NCBI GenBank assembly: GCA_018969975.1
Contig: JAGWXI010000013.1
Span: 1-44,798 of the forward strand
Length of the DNA stretch: 44,798 nt
Direction: 5' to 3'
From: Burkholderiales bacterium
GTDB lineage: Bacteria > Pseudomonadota > Gammaproteobacteria > Burkholderiales > Burkholderiaceae_C
How positions within the stretch are numbered: the stretch's first letter is position 1; the number at the start of each line of letters is the position of its first letter. Position numbers and translations under genes: made by a program. Below are positions 18,773 to 24,597 of this stretch, piece by piece. The notes below the pieces were generated by a model. It made no database searches. It worked only from the letters and a program-made list of their open reading frames with translations, and was not told the DNA's origin.

Positions 18773-18786
18773 GCAAATCAAAAAAA

Positions 18787-18811
18787 CCAGTTCTTCTTGT
18801 GGAAGAACTGG
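18787..18811. terminator. bidirectional hairpin terminator after the ElyC-like gene
   Basis: Perfect 10-bp stem CCAGTTCTTC (18787-18796) / GAAGAACTGG (18802-18811) with a 5-nt loop. On the plus strand only CTTTC follows. On the minus strand a run of seven T follows (A run at 18780-18786). It is therefore a better terminator for something transcribed leftward from the island side than for the upstream gene. Confidence 0.7.
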
Positions 18812-19149
18812 CTTTCAAAGTGTTGCTGTGTAGTTTACTGCTATCTACGTCCAACCTTCCGAGCCCTGAGTAATACCGGGTGCGTGTGCGTAGAGATGGA
18901 GATAGATCGATGAGACCCTTTTGGGTGGCGTCTCAGGCCGCGCCGGGTTGTCTGCCCTTGCCCTGTCTCCGCCATAGAGCAAATGGACACGCGGGTTATT
19001 TGAAAATTTCGAATAAGTGAACTTTCCTGGCGGACGGCTGCCCGTCTCTGAAACCCGAGTTGGGGCTAGATAGCACTGCTGCGGGTTGGTTCGGTAAGGA
19101 GAGTAAATCGCAGATAGATTTTTCGATACGCGCATTACTGCAGGTGCAA
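18812..19149. other. 338-bp intergenic region, structured, no convincing gene
   Basis: No protein I can support lies here. The region has several inverted repeats: TGAGAC/GTCTCA (18911-18916 with 18930-18935), arms TTATTTGAAA/TTTCGAATAA with one mismatch (18996-19016), GACGG/CCGTC (19033-19046) and CGGGTT/AACCCG (18992-18997 with 19052-19057). Leftward transcription would end at the hairpin with a seven-T tail. That arrangement fits a structured non-coding RNA of roughly 300-350 nt on the minus strand, but it does not show the conserved cores I know for tmRNA, RNase P RNA or SRP RNA. A 96-codon open frame (18845-19135, minus) is present but has no recognisable domain. Confidence 0.3.
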
Positions 19150-19503
19150 TCAGGTTTTACGCTTCAGCCGCTCGACTTCGGCGTTGAACGAAGGGGTCAG
19201 TTCTACGATCAGGGTTTCGATGTCGCGCACCTGATGTTGAACCGTCAGCACCGCGATGCCTTGCGGCACGAGGTCGTAGATCACGAAGTGCTGCCGCGCC
19301 GGAACCATCAGAAACGGAGCAGAGCGGTACTGCCGCAAGCGCCCCTTCTTTGGGTCGGCGGTAGCAAGGCCCATGACAGCATACAAGTCGGCAAGATAGC
19401 GGTCGGCAACATCGTCGCCCCATTCCCGGCACGACCGCATATAGATGCGTCGCAAATCCAGCGCCGCATTCCGGGTCAGCAGGAACGTGGCAGGTGATGG
19501 CAT
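19150..19503 (-). CDS. parE: ParE/RelE-superfamily toxin
   Basis: Toxin of a type II toxin-antitoxin pair. ParE proteins inhibit DNA gyrase, but RelE-fold relatives can be mRNA interferases. The 117-aa product from the ATG at 19503 shows the ParE layout: helices with LTRNAALDLRRIYMRSCREW, then KGRLRQYRSAPFLMVPARQHFVIYD and the strand IAVLTVQHQVRDIETLI. The start codon lies 1 bp before the end of the parD stop (19505), so the two are translationally coupled. The frame extends upstream through parD but that part is the shadow of the antitoxin. Confidence 0.85.
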   Translation of the reverse strand: MPSPATFLLTRNAALDLRRIYMRSCREWGDDVADRYLADLYAVMGLATADPKKGRLRQYRSAPFLMVPARQHFVIYDLVPQGIAVLTVQHQVRDIETLIVELTPSFNAEVERLKRKT

Positions 19504-19504
19504 G

Positions 19505-19774
19505 TCACTGCCAGCCATCGACTTCCTTGCGGTCCAGCGTCGCCATGTCGGCCTTGAAGTCGCCGCTGGACGCAAAGACGCGGCCTGCCGCCAGGTCTCG
19601 ATAACCGGCGAGGATGGCGTCCTGCACAAACTGACCGTCACGCCGTTCCATGTCGCGGCGGATCAGGTCGCGCACGTATTCGCTGGGTGTTTCGTAAAGA
19701 CCCGCCTCGCCGACCATTCGATCCACGAATTCAGCCAGGGGTTGCGACAGACGGGCGTTGATGCGTTCAGACAT
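19505..19774 (-). CDS. parD: ParD-like ribbon-helix-helix antitoxin
   Basis: Antitoxin that binds ParE and represses the operon. The 89-aa protein begins with an RHH strand (RINARLSQPLAEFVDRM), followed by ETPSEYVRDLIRRDMERRD, typical of the ParD/CopG class. A C-terminal arm for toxin binding ends in DRKEVDGWQ. A strong Shine-Dalgarno (GAGAGG, 5 nt before ATG) fixes the start. It is the first gene of parDE and sits downstream of two operator-like direct repeats (19805-19834). It is read in the same direction as the primase-helicase, which ends 128 bp upstream. Confidence 0.87.
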   Translation of the reverse strand: MSERINARLSQPLAEFVDRMVGEAGLYETPSEYVRDLIRRDMERRDGQFVQDAILAGYRDLAAGRVFASSGDFKADMATLDRKEVDGWQ

Positions 19775-19804
19775 GGGAACCTCTCGGAGCGATCATATGG
19801 TGGA

Positions 19805-19834
19805 ATTGTCGCACCGATGGCGGCATTTGTCGCA
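19805..19834. repeat. two direct repeats upstream of parD, probable operator
   Basis: ATTGTCGCA at 19805-19813 and TTTGTCGCA at 19826-19834 are in the same orientation, 21 bp apart, two helical turns. They lie 31-60 bp upstream of the parD start, where an RHH antitoxin would bind for autorepression. Confidence 0.5.
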
Positions 19835-19875
19835 ACTATTGCGCACGCAGAAGACGTGAGACTGTACTGGCACCT

Positions 19876-19945
19876 AATTTCGCTCATTTCGCCTCGAGGA
19901 ATCACGGGCAAGCCGTTGTCACGACACAAATTTCGCTGATTTCGC
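19876..19945. repeat. 17-bp direct repeat straddling the 3' end of the primase-helicase gene
   Basis: AATTTCGCTCATTTCGC (19876-19892) and AATTTCGCTGATTTCGC (19929-19945) differ at one base and are 53 bp apart. The right copy encodes part of the protein's C-terminus (FSEISEI); the left copy is just beyond the stop codon. Each copy is itself made of the shorter unit ATTTCGC repeated. Confidence 0.6.
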
Positions 19946-22295
19946 TAAATTCGCGCTGTGCCTCGACGCGATAGCCCATCGCATGGTAGCCCATTTGCCG
20001 CTTGTCCCACATCCGGAGCAAGGCCGGATGGCCGGTGTCCACGAAATCGATGATCCGCACGTCAGTCTTGCTGGCGTGCTCACGGTGCAGGCGCCCGGCG
20101 TACTGCTGAAGGGTACCTTTCCAGGAAACTGGCATGGCCAGGACCAGCGTGTCCAACGGTGGGTGGTCGAAGCCCTCGCCAACCAGCTTCCCAGTCGAAA
20201 GTAAAACGCGCGGTGCGTCGGGCGGCAGTGCATCCAGAGCAGCTACCAGTGCCACTCGCTGCTTCTTGGACATGCGTCCGTGCAAGACAAATGGCGCAGG
20301 CTCCAATCCATCAAGGGCAGCTTTGATCGCATCGAGGTGTTCCGTGCGTTCGGTCAGCACCAGAACCTTGCGTCCCTGTTCGACTGCATCACGCACCTCG
20401 GCGGCGATGGACTCCGTTCTGGGCTGGTCATTGGCGAGATGCCGAAACACGTCCTGGATGCCTGCATCAGCGGGAAGATCGATACGCGTGAAGCGTGAAC
20501 GAGGCAACACCTCCAGATCGTGAGGCGCACCAGCAGGCCTGGCCGCCGTGTATCGGATCGGTCCGCACTGCATGAAGATGATGGGCTGCTGACCATCCCG
20601 GCGTATGGGCGTCGCTGTCAGGCCCAGCACGTACTTGGCCTTGGTCCGCCTCAGAATGGCATCAAACGATACAGCGCCAACGTGGTGGCACTCGTCCACG
20701 ATCACCTGACCGTAGTTTTCTACCAACGGGTTCACCTCGCCCTGTCGGGAAACGGACTGCATCACGGCAATGTCGATCTTGCCCGTAGGTTTGGCTTTGC
20801 CACCGCCGATGGTGCCGACCACACCCTTGCCAACGCCCAGAAAAGCCTGCAGTCGTTCCTGCCATTGTTTGAGCAGTTCCGTTCGATGCACCAGCACCAG
20901 TGTTTTTACACCCCGGCGCGCGATCATTGCGGCGGCAGTGACCGTTTTGCCAAAGGCCGTTGGGGCGCACAGCACGCCGGTGTCGTGATGCAGCATTCCG
21001 GCAACTGCGGCCTCCTGGTCCAGACGCAACGTGCCGACGAAGGAGACGTCGATGGATTCCCCGCCGAAACGCTCATCGCGCAGGTCACAGGCGATGCCGT
21101 TGTCCTGGAGTAAATCCAGCGCGGCATCGAGGCAACCGCGAGGCAAGGCGATGTGCTGCGGGTAGTTCTCCGCATTGCCGATGACACGGGGCTTGTCCCA
21201 GACCGACATGCGCATGGCCTGGGCTTTGTAGAACTCGGGGTTCTGGAAGGCTGCCAGACGGATCAGGCGGTTGGCCAGTGTCTGTGGCAACTGCGCCTTT
21301 TCAAAATAGATGAGATTGGCCAGCGTCACAGTCAACGATTTCGGCATGGGGCCAGCCAGTTTTTTGACCGCAGCGCCGTCACGCTTCCAGGGCGTGGCCA
21401 GATCCTCGTCTTCGATAAAGGTGACATCCAGTGGATGAGTGCCGCCCGTGGCCTGCAGGATGGTCGGCTCGATGTCGTGTGCGGCCATGGGCAGGATGGA
21501 GGCGAGGAACCCCCATTGATCCGGATACGGGCGCAGATCGGCATCGACGAAGACACTGCAACCACTTTCACGAGGCCATTTCTGCAACGGCAAGGCAATC
21601 AGGTTGCCGAAGCCGCCTTTGGGCATCGAGTCCTGGTTCGGGAACAGCCGGTCGTAGGATTCCAGCTTCAGTTGCCGGGTGCGCGAGCAGGTGTGGCTGA
21701 TGATGGCGGTGCCAAGGCGCCGGGCGTCACGTGCAGAAACACGGTTGGCGAAAAACACCCACGCGTGCGCGCCATTCCCAGACCGAGAAATTTCCAGCGA
21801 AGCCTGGACTCCCAGTTCATGGCAGGATTGCATGAAGGCTCGCGCGTCGTCGCGCCAGTCGGCCTCGTCAAAATCGGCCGCCAGAAAATAGCAGGTGTCA
21901 TCCTCCAGCAGTGGGTACACCCCGACCGTATGCTCTCCGGCCAAGTGGTCATAGATCACAGCATCGGACAGGGGGATCAACAGGCGATTGCTGCAGTCCC
22001 CGCACTTGATGCGCGGCTTTTCACAGACACCGGCGCGCCACTCGTTGGCGCAGGCAGGGGCATATCCTGACTTGCCAGAGGTCTTGCCTTCCCAACGAAT
22101 GGGATACACATCGGTGCGCCCACGAAACAGCCGGCGAAACAATATGACCTTTTCTGCGGTGGAAAGCCTGGATGGCTCCGGCTCGCGTGCCAATGCGACG
22201 ACAGGTTGTGGCTGTCGCCATTCGATGCCGTGCGACTCGAGCAGGGTGATTAGGCGGGCGTTTTCGGCTACCAGTGCCTCCAGTTGATTTGTCAT
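19902..22295 (-). CDS. primase-SF2 helicase fusion (TOTE conflict-system type)
   Basis: A 797-aa fusion. A short N-terminal coiled coil (1-22) is followed by a cysteine cluster (C82, C91, C98, C101), probably zinc-binding. Next comes an archaeo-eukaryotic primase domain with the metal motif LAADFDEADW (Asp141, Asp143) and SRSGNGAHAWVFF (172-182). The C-terminal half is an SF2 helicase: Walker A APTAFGKT (444-451), VIVDECHH (532-538), LTATPIRR (559-566) and motif VI QYAGRLHREH (731-740). I match this to proteins annotated as TOTE conflict-system primases, a predicted defence-type family; activity is unproven. I choose the ATG at 22295 (MTNQLEAL); the frame is open further upstream to 22418. 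No Shine-Dalgarno is evident. G+C is higher than in neighbours, suggesting transfer. Confidence 0.85.
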   Translation of the reverse strand: MTNQLEALVAENARLITLLESHGIEWRQPQPVVALAREPEPSRLSTAEKVILFRRLFRGRTDVYPIRWEGKTSGKSGYAPACANEWRAGVCEKPRIKCGDCSNRLLIPLSDAVIYDHLAGEHTVGVYPLLEDDTCYFLAADFDEADWRDDARAFMQSCHELGVQASLEISRSGNGAHAWVFFANRVSARDARRLGTAIISHTCSRTRQLKLESYDRLFPNQDSMPKGGFGNLIALPLQKWPRESGCSVFVDADLRPYPDQWGFLASILPMAAHDIEPTILQATGGTHPLDVTFIEDEDLATPWKRDGAAVKKLAGPMPKSLTVTLANLIYFEKAQLPQTLANRLIRLAAFQNPEFYKAQAMRMSVWDKPRVIGNAENYPQHIALPRGCLDAALDLLQDNGIACDLRDERFGGESIDVSFVGTLRLDQEAAVAGMLHHDTGVLCAPTAFGKTVTAAAMIARRGVKTLVLVHRTELLKQWQERLQAFLGVGKGVVGTIGGGKAKPTGKIDIAVMQSVSRQGEVNPLVENYGQVIVDECHHVGAVSFDAILRRTKAKYVLGLTATPIRRDGQQPIIFMQCGPIRYTAARPAGAPHDLEVLPRSRFTRIDLPADAGIQDVFRHLANDQPRTESIAAEVRDAVEQGRKVLVLTERTEHLDAIKAALDGLEPAPFVLHGRMSKKQRVALVAALDALPPDAPRVLLSTGKLVGEGFDHPPLDTLVLAMPVSWKGTLQQYAGRLHREHASKTDVRIIDFVDTGHPALLRMWDKRQMGYHAMGYRVEAQREFSEISEICVVTTACP

Positions 22296-22486
22296 GTGAT
22301 GGCGACATCTAGAGAGGCTGCTTCGGCTGCGTCGTGTCCATTCCCCACCCACATTGCAGACTGACTGTCCCACGGGCTGTGGGACGAGGTTGGCGGGTTG
22401 AACCTGGACCCAATCCATTTGGGCCCAAGTTGTTAACGATGTGATTGGTACAAACTGTAAATAGTGTCATCAGGTCAAAGAGCCGT
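22296..22486. other. intergenic region between higA and the primase-helicase, with hairpin
   Basis: No gene seen. The perfect 7-bp inverted repeat GTCCCAC (22367-22373) / GTGGGAC (22379-22385) with a 5-nt loop lies about 70-90 bp upstream of the primase-helicase start. A weaker CCCAA/TTGGG repeat lies near 22410-22424. These could be an operator or an attenuator for the primase-helicase. No clear promoter elements were identified. Confidence 0.35.
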
Positions 22487-22801
22487 TCAAACGGTCTCCA
22501 ACCGCTGGGCGGTATCTGGAAATCTTTCCAACATTCTTATTAGTAGGCTAGCCTGCGCATTGGGGCGCGCTCTGCCTTGCTCCCAGTTTTGTAGTGTTTT
22601 TATCTTAGTTCTGAGCTTCAAGGCAAAGACAGGCTGAGAAAGATTGAGTTTTTCTCGCACAGCTTTGACTTCGTCTGCAGAGACTTCGATTGTCGGCATA
22701 GCCTTCACTTTAGTCGAGCGCAAGGTGCGCTTTCCCTCGCGGGCATCTTTCAGCGCGTCAAAACCTTCTGAAATTTCAGCAAACAGATTGCGTTTTTTCA
22801 T
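22487..22801 (-). CDS. higA: XRE-type antitoxin of a HigBA-like pair
   Basis: Helix-turn-helix antitoxin and autorepressor. The 104-aa protein has an N-terminal arm of about 40 residues, then an XRE domain: VSADEVKAVREKLNLSQPVFA with LKLRTKIKTLQNWEQGRARP and a C-terminal LLIRMLERFPD. This is the NadS/HigA style in which the HTH is C-terminal. The start overlaps the higB stop by 4 bp, so toxin and antitoxin are co-translated with the toxin first, as is characteristic of HigBA. Confidence 0.88.
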   Translation of the reverse strand: MKKRNLFAEISEGFDALKDAREGKRTLRSTKVKAMPTIEVSADEVKAVREKLNLSQPVFALKLRTKIKTLQNWEQGRARPNAQASLLIRMLERFPDTAQRLETV

Positions 22802-23136
22802 TTCCGAGCCTCCAACTCTGCCTTCAACATCACTTTCAGAGCCGCCTTTTCTTTAGGCGACAAGTCATCCATTTCGTCTTTACCGTACACCGTGAAAAGC
22901 CAGAACTGACTTTTGCCATCCCAATAAAAGTAAATGACTCTTAGCCCGCCGCGCTTCCCTTTACCCCTTCGCTCATCTGCGAAACGCACTTTGCGTAGGC
23001 CACCCGTACCCTCAATAAGGTCGCCAGCTTGAGGATTCCTCATCAACTCAGCTTGCAGCTGACCAAACGCGTGATCATCAAGATAGTCGGCTCTGTGGCG
23101 CTCAAATGGGGGCAATTCGACGAATAGTGCTTTCAT
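22798..23136 (-). CDS. higB: HigB/RelE-superfamily toxin
   Basis: Toxin, predicted ribosome-dependent mRNA interferase. The 112-aa product from the ATG at 23136 contains [61 protein letters not shown] and [20 protein letters not shown], the order of segments in the RelE/HigB-like family that pairs with an XRE antitoxin. The frame opens 48 bp further upstream, but promoter elements lie inside that extension, so I use 23136. It is divergent from fic. Confidence 0.87.
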
Positions 23137-23168
23137 GAAAGTATACGCAAGTTGGGTATATTTTACAA
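23137..23168 (-). promoter_or_regulatory. higBA promoter with embedded inverted-repeat operator
   Basis: On the minus strand TTGTAA and TATACT are 17 bp apart, with TATACT ending only 3 nt before the higB ATG. An inverted repeat, AAAGTATAC (23138-23146) and GTATATTTT (23156-23164), matches at 8 of 9 positions with a 9-bp spacer and covers the promoter core. HigA binding here would block RNA polymerase. The tight spacing suggests a leaderless or nearly leaderless mRNA if this -10 is used. An alternative -10 (TATACC) further upstream would leave a leader of about 14 nt. Confidence 0.5.
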
Positions 23169-23262
23169 GCAAACCTTTGCCCAAACTAGCCTACTGTTGC
23201 AACATGTCTATGGTGCTGTGTGCCTGATCAGCTCAGTCACTGTGAATTCAACCAGTGTCCCT

Positions 23263-23360
23263 CAGCGACACGTCGCCAGAACGTGTCGCTGGAATTCAAG
23301 AATATCGACACATCATCTGGACATGTCGCCAGAAGCGACATATGATGAGATCGTGTCGAT
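23263..23360. promoter_or_regulatory. two palindromic operator-like elements upstream of fic
   Basis: Element 1: perfect 11-bp inverted repeat CAGCGACACGT (23263-23273) / ACGTGTCGCTG (23281-23291), 7-bp spacer. Element 2: nested dyad ATCGACAC (23304-23311), 12 bp, TGTCGC (23324-23329), 5 bp, GCGACA (23335-23340), 12 bp, GTGTCGAT (23353-23360), with all four arms in exact symmetry about 23332. The two dyad centres are 55 bp apart. The sequence GTCGCCAGAA occurs in both (23272-23281 and 23325-23334). All half-sites share the core CGACA/TGTCG. The second element ends 4 bp before the chosen fic start. Confidence 0.65.
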
Positions 23361-23364
23361 AAAA

Positions 23365-24513
23365 ATGAGTTACGAGAACATGACGAACGCCGAACAAGGT
23401 GCGTGGCGCCCAGACAAGCCCCATAACCAACTCCCACCACTCCCGCCTCCGCAGGAACTGGAAAGTCGTGCCGTACTGAAAGCTTGCATCACAGCTCGCG
23501 CGGCCTTGGCGCAACTCAAGCAAGCGGCAGAACTGATCCCGAATCAGACTATGCTGATCAACACGATCCCATTGTTGGAAGCGAAGGACAGCTCTGAGAT
23601 TGAGAACATTGTCACCACAATAGACAAGTTGTTTCAACACGCCCAGACCGATGGGCACGGTCAAGCTGACACTGCGACCAAAGAAGCGCTTAGATACAGA
23701 TCCGCTCTACACCGAGGGTATCAGTCACTAAAAGAACGCCCACTTTGCACGGCCACGGCTGTCGATATTTGCCGAACCCTCAAAGCTGTGGACATGGATA
23801 TCCGCAAGACTCCAGGCACACAACTTGAAAATGACAAAACGGGCGAAATCATTTACACGTCGCCTGAAGGTGAGACGTTGCTGCGTGACATGCTGGCAAA
23901 TTGGGAACGTTTCATTCATAACGAAGTAGACATTGATCCCCTTATCCGCATGGCCGTAGCGCATTACCAGTTTGAGGCTATTCATCCGTTCAGTGACGGC
24001 AATGGCCGTACAGGGCGCGTGATCAACATACTTTTTTTGATTCAACAGGACCTACTTCAGTTACCCATCCTGTATTTAAGCCGTCACATCATTCAGAACA
24101 AACCTGACTACTACCGTCTGTTGCTCGCTGTCACGAAAGATCACGACTGGGAATCATGGGTCCTCTTCATGCTGAAGGCTGTAGAAGACACATCACGTTG
24201 GACAACTGAAAAAATTGGTGCCATCAGAGATTTAGCAGAACACACCACGGCACATGTTCGCCACAGCTTGCCCAAGATTTACTCAAGAGAGCTTGTCGAT
24301 GTGATTTTTGAGCAGCCTTATTGCCGAATCTCAGACTTGGTGAACAAAGGTGTTGCCAAACGCCAAGCAGCATCGCGCTATCTAAAGGAAATGACAGAAA
24401 AAGGTGTTCTTCGAGAGATGACTCTAGGAAAAGAAAAATTATTCATTCATCCCAAGCTGATGCTACTTCTCAGTCGAGATAGCAATCAATTCGTTAAGTA
24501 CGACATTGCGTAA
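23365..24513 (+). CDS. Fic family protein (adenylyltransferase type) with N-terminal inhibitory helix
   Basis: Fic enzymes transfer AMP or related groups to target-protein hydroxyls. The 382-aa product has the Fic N-terminal domain (about 10-100) with [15 protein letters not shown]. This contains the inhibitory motif (S/T)xxxE(G/N), S76 to N81 with Glu80, which marks a self-inhibited class II Fic. The catalytic motif [12 protein letters not shown] is intact (207-218). The C-terminal part (about 305-365) looks like a winged helix. The start is uncertain: ATG 23365 follows the operator-like dyad, and in-frame ATG 23323 and GTG 23353 are alternatives. None has a good Shine-Dalgarno. The stop is 8 bp from the 3' end of tRNA-Thr. 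Confidence 0.92.
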
Positions 24514-24521
24514 TTTCAAAA

Positions 24522-24597
24522 TGGTGCCGCTTGTCGGATTCGAACTGACGACCTACCGCTTACAAGGCGGGTGCTCTACCAACTGAGCTAAAGCGGC
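24522..24597 (-). tRNA. tRNA-Thr (UGU anticodon)
   Basis: The minus strand folds as a tRNA. The acceptor pair is GCCGCTT/AAGCGGC with discriminator A and an encoded CCA. The D arm is TTAGCTCAGTTGGTAGAGC, the anticodon arm CCGCCTTGTAAGCGG gives anticodon TGT, and the T arm is GTCAGTTCGAATCCGAC. All stems pair. Length is 76 nt including CCA. It lies 31 bp upstream of sspB on the same strand. Its 3' end faces the accessory island. Confidence 0.97.

What the first reader, a model, noticed from the sequence alone, without database searches (positions are those of the whole stretch)
18812..24521. Composite accessory island: ParDE, primase-helicase, HigBA and Fic packed between a core gene and tRNA-Thr
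Within 5.7 kb, four unrelated conflict-type modules lie side by side: ParDE, a primase-SF2 helicase fusion of the TOTE conflict type, HigBA and a self-inhibited Fic protein. The flanks are ordinary core genes (ElyC-like gene on one side, tRNA-Thr/sspB on the other). The order and composition suggest stacked, independent arrivals at a hotspot. A defence role for the primase-helicase is inferred from family naming, not shown.
Basis: partly seen in the sequence, partly recalled or inferred. Interest (0 to 1): 0.7.

Follow-up and report, generated by a model that had tools for sequence, protein, structure and literature searches.

The report
Defence-gene island beside a tRNA gene
Four toxin- and defence-type gene sets sit next to a threonine tRNA gene because at least two separate pieces of DNA were inserted at the end of that tRNA; one piece, a growth-blocking enzyme gene, carries a strikingly conserved row of control sites that suggests the enzyme switches off its own gene.

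Summary
In detail: ParDE, an AEP primase-SF2 helicase, HigBA and a SoFic-type Fic gene lie between an ElyC-like gene and tRNA-Thr/sspB. None of 25 comparable same-genus intervals has this set. Homology breakpoints revise the history. Block 18821-22350 (leader, ParDE, primase-helicase) recurs as one piece, apparently at the same tRNA-Thr, in a second genus. SoFic recurs at that tRNA in a congener without the other three modules, homology starting at 23212. An IS481-like remnant lies between helicase and HigBA. So ParDE and helicase travelled together, SoFic separately; HigBA is unresolved. The insertion split the tRNA from its terminator. A related genome has an integrase-bearing 12.6-kb element there, bounded by 55-bp repeats of the tRNA end. 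The helicase is not a complete TOTE system. New: SoFic's promoter carries three CGACA-N13-TGTCG sites; 22 of 24 SoFic genes (at least 60% identity) in the order and 7 of 7 fetched alpha- and gammaproteobacterial plasmid copies have at least one, predicting autorepression. No function was tested.

The parts
18782..18816 (-). Terminator of tRNA-Thr, now about 5.7 kb from the tRNA
   Evidence: Hairpin with T run on the minus strand; the same hairpin is a few bases from the tRNA 3' end in G001 and G004
18821..18832 (+). Left boundary, degenerate copy of the tRNA-Thr 3' end (TGTTGCTGTGTA)
   Evidence: Homology to L067 starts here; 85% over 40 bases inside, 40% over 40 bases outside
18833..19149 (.). 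Noncoding leader of the ParDE/helicase unit
   Evidence: Within the 86% block shared with L067; no match in the plasmid collection; besides the own genome, 1 of 299 family genomes, over 35 bases only
19150..19503 (-). ParE-family toxin
   Evidence: PF05016; dN/dS 0.127 against L067
19505..19774 (-). ParD-family antitoxin
   Evidence: TIGR02606 below cut-off; dN/dS 0.327 against L067
19902..22295 (-). AEP primase fused to SF2 helicase
   Evidence: PF22548, PF04851, PF00271; 91.7% aa identity and dN/dS 0.098 against L067; start codon is a judgement
22389..22476 (.). Terminal fragment of an IS481-like insertion sequence, between helicase and HigBA
   Evidence: Copies elsewhere in own genome and relatives; full-length copy L268 encodes a transposase with rve and LZ_Tnp_IS481 matches
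22487..22801 (-). HigA-like antitoxin
   Evidence: HTH_3 at cut-off, MqsA-type models below cut-off
22798..23136 (-). HigB-2-like toxin
   Evidence: PF06296 (on the longer ORF 22798-23184); Toxin HigB-2 structures, E about 1e-31
23211..23222 (+). Internal boundary, tRNA-Thr-end-like (TGGTGCTGTGTG), start of the SoFic unit
   Evidence: Homology to G065 starts at 23212; 85% over 40 bases inside, 22.5% outside
23266..23288 (+). Predicted SoFic operator O1
   Evidence: CGACA-N13-TGTCG
23306..23328 (+). Predicted SoFic operator O2, overlaps the -35-like hexamer
   Evidence: CGACA-N13-TGTCG; promoter-like TGGACA-17-TATGAT at 23318-23346
23336..23358 (+). Predicted SoFic operator O3, overlaps the -10-like hexamer
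   Evidence: CGACA-N13-TGTCG
23365..24513 (+). SoFic-type Fic protein (382 aa) with SSEIEN (inhibitory-helix-type motif) and [12 protein letters not shown] (Fic motif)
   Evidence: NF046030, PF13784, PF02661, PF21248; motifs read from the translation, their definitions recalled
24522..24597 (-). tRNA-Thr(TGT), the insertion target
   Evidence: ARAGORN, Rfam RF00005

Best explanation
The stretch is a tRNA-end accretion island. Shown by comparison: DNA was inserted between the 3' end of tRNA-Thr(TGT) and its terminator, and at least two units with different histories are stacked there: A (leader, ParDE, primase-helicase; 18821-22350) and B (SoFic with its promoter; 23211-24521). HigBA and an IS481-like remnant fill the space between. 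Inferred: the units arrived by tyrosine-recombinase-mediated insertion, as in the integrase-bearing element of G231 at the same site; no integrase is detectable in the window island, so it was lost or acted in trans. Inferred function: SoFic is an abortive-infection AMPylase held down by its inhibitory helix and by self-repression through the operator array; ParDE and HigBA are ordinary toxin-antitoxin pairs that may stabilise the island; the primase-helicase is an accessory of defence-type neighbourhoods that here stands without a restriction partner.
For: Empty site in two close relatives. Unit A with the same distal end, followed by GGCACCA, a terminator and an FMO gene, in G403; its congener G428 has sspB, tRNA-Thr, terminator and FMO in a row, and a G403 contig begins exactly at the tRNA-Thr 3' end. 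Unit B at the same tRNA in G065, following the old terminator and a tRNA-end-like sequence. Homology breakpoints fall on the tRNA-end-like sequences. 55-bp exact direct repeat, integrase and type I restriction genes in G231. Purifying selection: dN/dS 0.098 helicase, 0.094 SoFic. Operator array. SoFic is in PADLOC and reported as an anti-phage toxin (PMC12249575, part 1 of 4 read).
Against: The window's left repeat is degenerate (6 of 8 bases), and a boundary motif built only from L067 and G065 is not enriched in the window (3 hits, 1.74 expected). No integrase relative was found with two integrase queries. The tRNA side of the G403 insertion is on a separate contig, so continuity is inferred. 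G065 has about 440 bases between SoFic and the tRNA, with its own terminator, that the window lacks. In the three other genus genomes with the primase family, it lies on other contigs than sspB, so this site is not its usual home there. No read data exist to exclude misassembly.
Confidence: 0.78

Rival explanations
1. Four independent arrivals of four unrelated modules.
For: G+C step near 22300-22500; IS481-like remnant between helicase and HigBA. ParDE-like genes accompany the helicase in few relatives: a ParD and ParE pair in L067, a lone distant ParD match in L077, of 80 loci.
Against: Leader, ParDE and helicase form one continuous 86% identical block with L067, ending at the same kind of boundary, so the pairing predates this insertion.
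Confidence: 0.12
2. One co-transferred defence element carrying all four modules.
For: The modules are contiguous and lie between one native terminator and the tRNA.
Against: SoFic without the other three at the same site in G065; unit A without SoFic or HigBA in L067; different G+C.
Confidence: 0.06
3. Insertion by IS activity or homologous recombination, the tRNA-end likeness of the boundaries being chance.
For: IS481-like fragment inside the island; weak motif statistics; no integrase.
Against: Breakpoints coincide with tRNA-end-like sequence against two different relatives, and an exact 55-bp repeat of the tRNA end bounds an element at this tRNA in G231.
Confidence: 0.12
4. The CGACA-N13-TGTCG array is bound by another regulator, not by SoFic.
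For: No binding was tested; HigA, a predicted DNA-binding antitoxin, is encoded next door.
Against: The array accompanies SoFic in the window's order and on alpha- and gammaproteobacterial plasmids with varied annotated neighbours. SoFic structures have a C-terminal winged HTH (PMC10628234, passage). The related CccR represses its own gene (PMC9755527, passages).
Confidence: 0.15

Closest known systems
tRNA-targeted genomic islands and defence islands (for example PMC4891358 on asparagine-tDNA islands and PMC10121019 on E. coli defence islands; both seen only as a search listing with abstract openings)
   Same: Variable cargo at a tRNA 3' end; defence and toxin-antitoxin genes; repeat of the tRNA end in a relative
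   Different: No integrase here; degenerate repeat; tRNA-Thr separated from its terminator
SoFic anti-phage protein (PADLOC SoFic; PDB 3eqx, 3zcn, 9tch)
   Same: Near full-length match with Fic_N, Fic and SoFic-like_C domains and both motifs
   Different: No room for the downstream AS1 antitoxin described for E. coli H397 (PMC12249575): 8 bases lie between the stop and the tRNA
CccR, Fic-HTH toxin and autorepressor (PMC9755527, passages)
   Same: Class II Fic with C-terminal HTH; inverted repeats near the -35 and -10 of its own gene
   Different: CccR uses AGATAATCAT half-sites with a 26-bp spacer, one pair; here CGACA with a 13-bp spacer, one to four copies per promoter in the 22 that have it
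AEP-TOTE family primase-helicases (PF22548)
   Same: AEP domain 332 bits, SF2 helicase domains
   Different: No TPR, OB or TBP partner; 28 of 56 relatives' neighbourhoods hold Hsd, RhuM, DUF1016, AbiE or a 181-aa gene instead
HigB-2/HigA-2 toxin-antitoxin pair (PDB 5ja8, 5ja9; V. cholerae origin recalled)
   Same: Toxin-first pair, HigB-2 match E about 1e-31
   Different: Antitoxin only weakly matches curated models

Membership tests
tRNA-site integrative island | Empty site in close relatives with clean junctions | tested here: met
   G001 and G004
tRNA-site integrative island | Direct repeat of the tRNA 3' end at the far border | tested here: inconclusive
   Degenerate in window, 6 of 8 bases; exact 55 bp in the G231 element
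tRNA-site integrative island | Integrase gene inside | tested here: not met
   Best tblastn E-values 2.7 and 1.2 with two integrases, none of the matches inside the island
SoFic anti-phage protein | Curated SoFic model above cut-off, Fic and SoFic C-terminal domains | tested here: met
   NF046030 642 bits, cut-off 550; PF21248
SoFic anti-phage protein | Class II inhibitory helix motif and Fic catalytic motif | tested here: met
   SSEIEN and [12 protein letters not shown] read in the translation; motif definitions recalled
SoFic anti-phage protein | Protects against phage | not testable with these tools
   Needs experiment
TOTE conflict system | AEP effector domain | tested here: met
   PF22548
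TOTE conflict system | TPR, OB and TBP partner genes | tested here: not met
   No such family among the 8 proteins scanned; definition from PMC12458937 passages; the original 2022 paper was not seen
HigBA type II toxin-antitoxin | RelE/HigB-family toxin followed by HTH antitoxin | tested here: met
   gene order
ParDE type II toxin-antitoxin | ParE above cut-off | tested here: met
   PF05016
ParDE type II toxin-antitoxin | ParD-family antitoxin above cut-off | tested here: inconclusive
   TIGR02606 34.6 bits, cut-off 46.2
Fic-HTH autorepressor (CccR-like) | Inverted-repeat operator at own promoter | tested here: met
Fic-HTH autorepressor (CccR-like) | Protein binds it and represses | not testable with these tools
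   Needs EMSA and reporter

The most novel reading that the evidence does not exclude
SoFic across Proteobacteria is a DNA-binding autorepressor with a strict 23-bp operator, CGACA-N13-TGTCG, and operator occupancy is coupled to AMPylation toxicity: phage interference with the repressor-operator complex both derepresses the gene and frees active enzyme. This would explain how a toxic Fic protein can be kept without a separate antitoxin, as in this island.
Probability: 0.35. Interest if true: 0.7.

Novelty: new variant of a known kind. Interest (0 to 1): 0.5.

Why it matters
It shows with near base-level boundaries how a multi-gene defence-type island was built at one tRNA end, and replaces four arrivals by at least two units bounded by homology breakpoints. 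It also gives a directly testable regulatory hypothesis for SoFic, whose DNA binding was said in 2023 not to have been demonstrated (PMC10628234, passage) and whose control was called elusive in 2025 (PMC12249575 abstract). If the array is the SoFic operator, it is a sequence signature for the family and a lead to how the toxin is held and released.

Tried and rejected
Integron attC for the inverted repeat 18839-18855/19059-19075: spacing and boxes do not fit (judged by eye; rules recalled). Integron or MITE for the 87-bp repeat 22389-22476: dropped when a full-length copy gave an IS481-type transposase. Leader as a widespread element signature: no plasmid match, and in the family only a 35-base match. 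A boundary-motif test built without the window sites was not significant; the significant version used the window sites and is not counted as evidence. The insert of G203 at this site (L206) holds DegT-type aminotransferase and formyltransferase/epimerase genes, not defence. Covariation of recognition helix and operator: one suggestive exception (L290), left as a lead. The neighbourhood count used families first seen as recurrent in the same 80 loci, and the 40 sspB loci used as a control differ in length and kind, so both are rough. An early label of a G403 island gene as DUF3987-like found no Pfam match and was dropped. Structure prediction was not used.
Full report
What is there. Searches confirm, from left to right: ElyC-like (DUF218) gene, ParE/ParD, an AEP primase-SF2 helicase, HigA/HigB, a SoFic-type Fic gene, tRNA-Thr(TGT) and sspB. 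Likely starts differ from the longest ORFs: the helicase at 22295, HigB at 23136, SoFic at 23365. These starts are judgements from family models and relatives, not shown.

The site. In the same genus 31 stretches beside sspB were fetched. In 25 of 31 both DciA and tRNA-Thr are in the piece. In 11 of 25 they are at most 100 bases apart; one (G004) has only the ElyC-like gene between them; 13 have 0.57-3.57 kb of other sequence. None of the 31 pieces has a match (E up to 1e-4) to ParD, ParE, the helicase, HigB or Fic. One (G028, L058, DciA side missing) has a HigA-like gene, and also BrnA, Gp49 and HTH genes, on the contig beside the tRNA. From a family search in which 158 of 160 genomes had sspB I chose 40 with long contigs, one of them (G073) of the window's genus; DciA lies within 150 bases of the tRNA in 27 of 40. 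So SecA-DciA-tRNA-Thr-sspB is a conserved frame and the slot at the tRNA 3' end is variable.

Exact insertion point. In G001 and G004 a terminator hairpin stands a few bases from the tRNA 3' end. In the window the same hairpin is at 18782-18816 and the tRNA 3' end at 24522. The insertion therefore separated tRNA-Thr from its terminator; the scan found no terminator-like site between SoFic and the tRNA.

In L067 the block ends at GGCACCA followed by a terminator and an FMO-like gene. In its congener G428 that gene and a terminator directly follow tRNA-Thr and sspB, and a G403 contig starts exactly at the tRNA-Thr 3' end. Unit A thus very probably occupies the same tRNA in a second genus; the tRNA-side junction is not on one contig. 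Next to unit A, G403 carries type I restriction genes hsdM, hsdS and hsdR and a PIN-domain gene.

Unit B. Fic matches at E <= 1e-30 were found in 17 of 84 genus genomes; 8 of these (window included) are full-length at 65% identity or more. In one, G065, SoFic (93% aa) lies at the same tRNA-Thr without matches to the other three modules; homology with the window begins at 23212, right after the old terminator and GGGTGCTGTGTGG. Identity over 40 bases is 85% inside and 22.5% outside this point; for unit A it is 85% and 40%. The window carries TGGTGCTGTGTG at 23211, between HigBA and SoFic. Against this: motif statistics made without the window's own sites are not significant (3 hits, 1.74 expected), and G065 has about 440 extra bases between SoFic and tRNA.

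Between A and B. Bases 22389-22476 are the end of an insertion sequence. One search found 48-56-base matches on four other contigs of the own genome, a 29-base match on a fifth, and matches in several congeners. A full-length copy (L268) encodes a transposase with integrase-core and LZ_Tnp_IS481 matches. Parts of HigBA have 65-70% identical DNA in six congeners, but its arrival route is unresolved.

An autonomous relative. G231, one of the 40 family genomes, has a 12.6-kb element at the same tRNA-Thr, bounded by a 55-bp exact direct repeat of the tRNA 3' part. Inside are hsdM, hsdS and hsdR, a D5-like gene, a Replic_Relax gene and a tyrosine integrase beside the far repeat. The window island has no detectable match to this integrase or to one other. 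I infer integrase-mediated insertion, with the integrase lost or supplied in trans.

The helicase. TOTE means TPR, OB, TBP, Effector (PMC12458937, four passages). No such partner was found among the proteins scanned, so the system is not met although the AEP domain is. In 28 of 56 helicase loci with at least 4 kb upstream, Hsd (11), RhuM (9), DUF1016, AbiE or a recurrent 181-aa gene occurs in the locus; the same queries hit 1 of 40 sspB loci, and that one is the G231 island. Those families were picked because they recur in these loci, so the contrast is partly built in. Relatives are on plasmids: 311 of 72,556 records match, 91 over at least 80% of the protein. Of 1076 phage records with a match none covers 80%; the 20 listed cover 46-55%. 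Closest solved sequences are XPBII and RadD helicases and a TPR_REGION protein matched over the AEP part, which I recall to be a CRISPR-associated primase-polymerase. A defence role is an inference from neighbourhood.

Selection. dN/dS (NG86) is 0.098 for the helicase, 0.127 for ParE and 0.327 for ParD against L067, and 0.094 for SoFic against G065. The genes were under purifying selection for much of their separation.

SoFic control. The promoter carries CGACA-N13-TGTCG three times, at 23266, 23306 and 23336 (0.06 expected in the window), 40 and 30 bases apart, overlapping a promoter-like pair at 23318-23346. The word was first noticed in the window, so the test is in relatives. Of 24 SoFic genes of at least 60% identity with an aligned start (the window, 7 congeners, 16 from elsewhere in the order), 22 have the N13 pair, including 14 of the 16; of 46 CGACA/TGTCG pairs with spacing 0-30, 41 have exactly 13; none of the 24 has GACA-N13-TGTC in the 190 bases downstream. 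Three of the 24 frames contain stops (L280, L288, L289). Five partial matches were dropped before that count. The earlier word count kept them: 22 of 28 (window not counted) had three or more words upstream and 1 of 28 downstream, but in two of the partial ones (L295, L299) shuffles gave similar numbers. I fetched 7 plasmid SoFic genes of the 40 listed (245 records matched) from five alphaproteobacteria and two enterobacteria before seeing their upstream DNA; all 7 carry at least one N13 pair. Of 17 Fic genes below 60% identity 2 had three or more words. CccR, another Fic-HTH protein, binds inverted repeats near its own -35 and -10 and represses itself (PMC9755527, passages). PMC10628234 (passage) says DNA binding by SoFic had not been demonstrated. 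The listings (titles and abstract openings, open-access papers only) showed no SoFic operator; the passages on operators seen in PMC12249575 concern lac operators. In that paper (part 1 of 4 and passages) SoFic of E. coli H397 is neutralised by a downstream 47-aa protein, AS1; here 8 bases separate SoFic from the tRNA, so no AS1 gene can follow directly. Autorepression plus the inhibitory helix is therefore my proposed control.

Verdict. An ordinary kind of island with an unusually clear building history, and a conserved operator array that deserves a test.

Noticed in passing
window 23266-23358; L235-L305; L306-L312: CGACA-N13-TGTCG sites at SoFic promoters in the window's order and on alpha- and gammaproteobacterial plasmids.
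   Followed up: yes
L267, L268, L269, L276 and window 22389-22476: In 4 of 11 loci scanned for tRNAs around the IS481-like end or other HigBA-region matches, the IS end lies within about 20 bases of the 3' end of an intact tRNA-Met (two), tRNA-Arg or tRNA-Asn, as if this insertion sequence prefers tRNA ends.
   Followed up: partly
L102:5454-5999 and 18 of 80 helicase loci: An uncharacterised protein of about 181 aa (weak DUF6155, below cut-off) recurs near, in several loci directly upstream of, the primase-helicase.
   Followed up: partly
L231:552-13187 (G231): Compact integrase-bearing element at tRNA-Thr with type I restriction genes, a D5-like gene and a 55-bp repeat.
   Followed up: partly
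L306, L308, L309, L310: Four of seven fetched plasmid SoFic genes are annotated beside a site-specific recombinase or integrase gene.
   Followed up: no
L290, L294 upstream of SoFic: Two SoFic genes lack the CGACA word; L290 has a different inverted half-site at about the same place and a changed residue in the presumed recognition helix.
   Followed up: partly
L058 (G028): HigA-like, BrnA, Gp49 and HTH genes beside the same tRNA-Thr in another congener.
   Followed up: partly
window 24513-24522: SoFic and tRNA-Thr converge with 8 bases between them and no terminator-like site, so antisense read-through into SoFic is possible.
   Followed up: no
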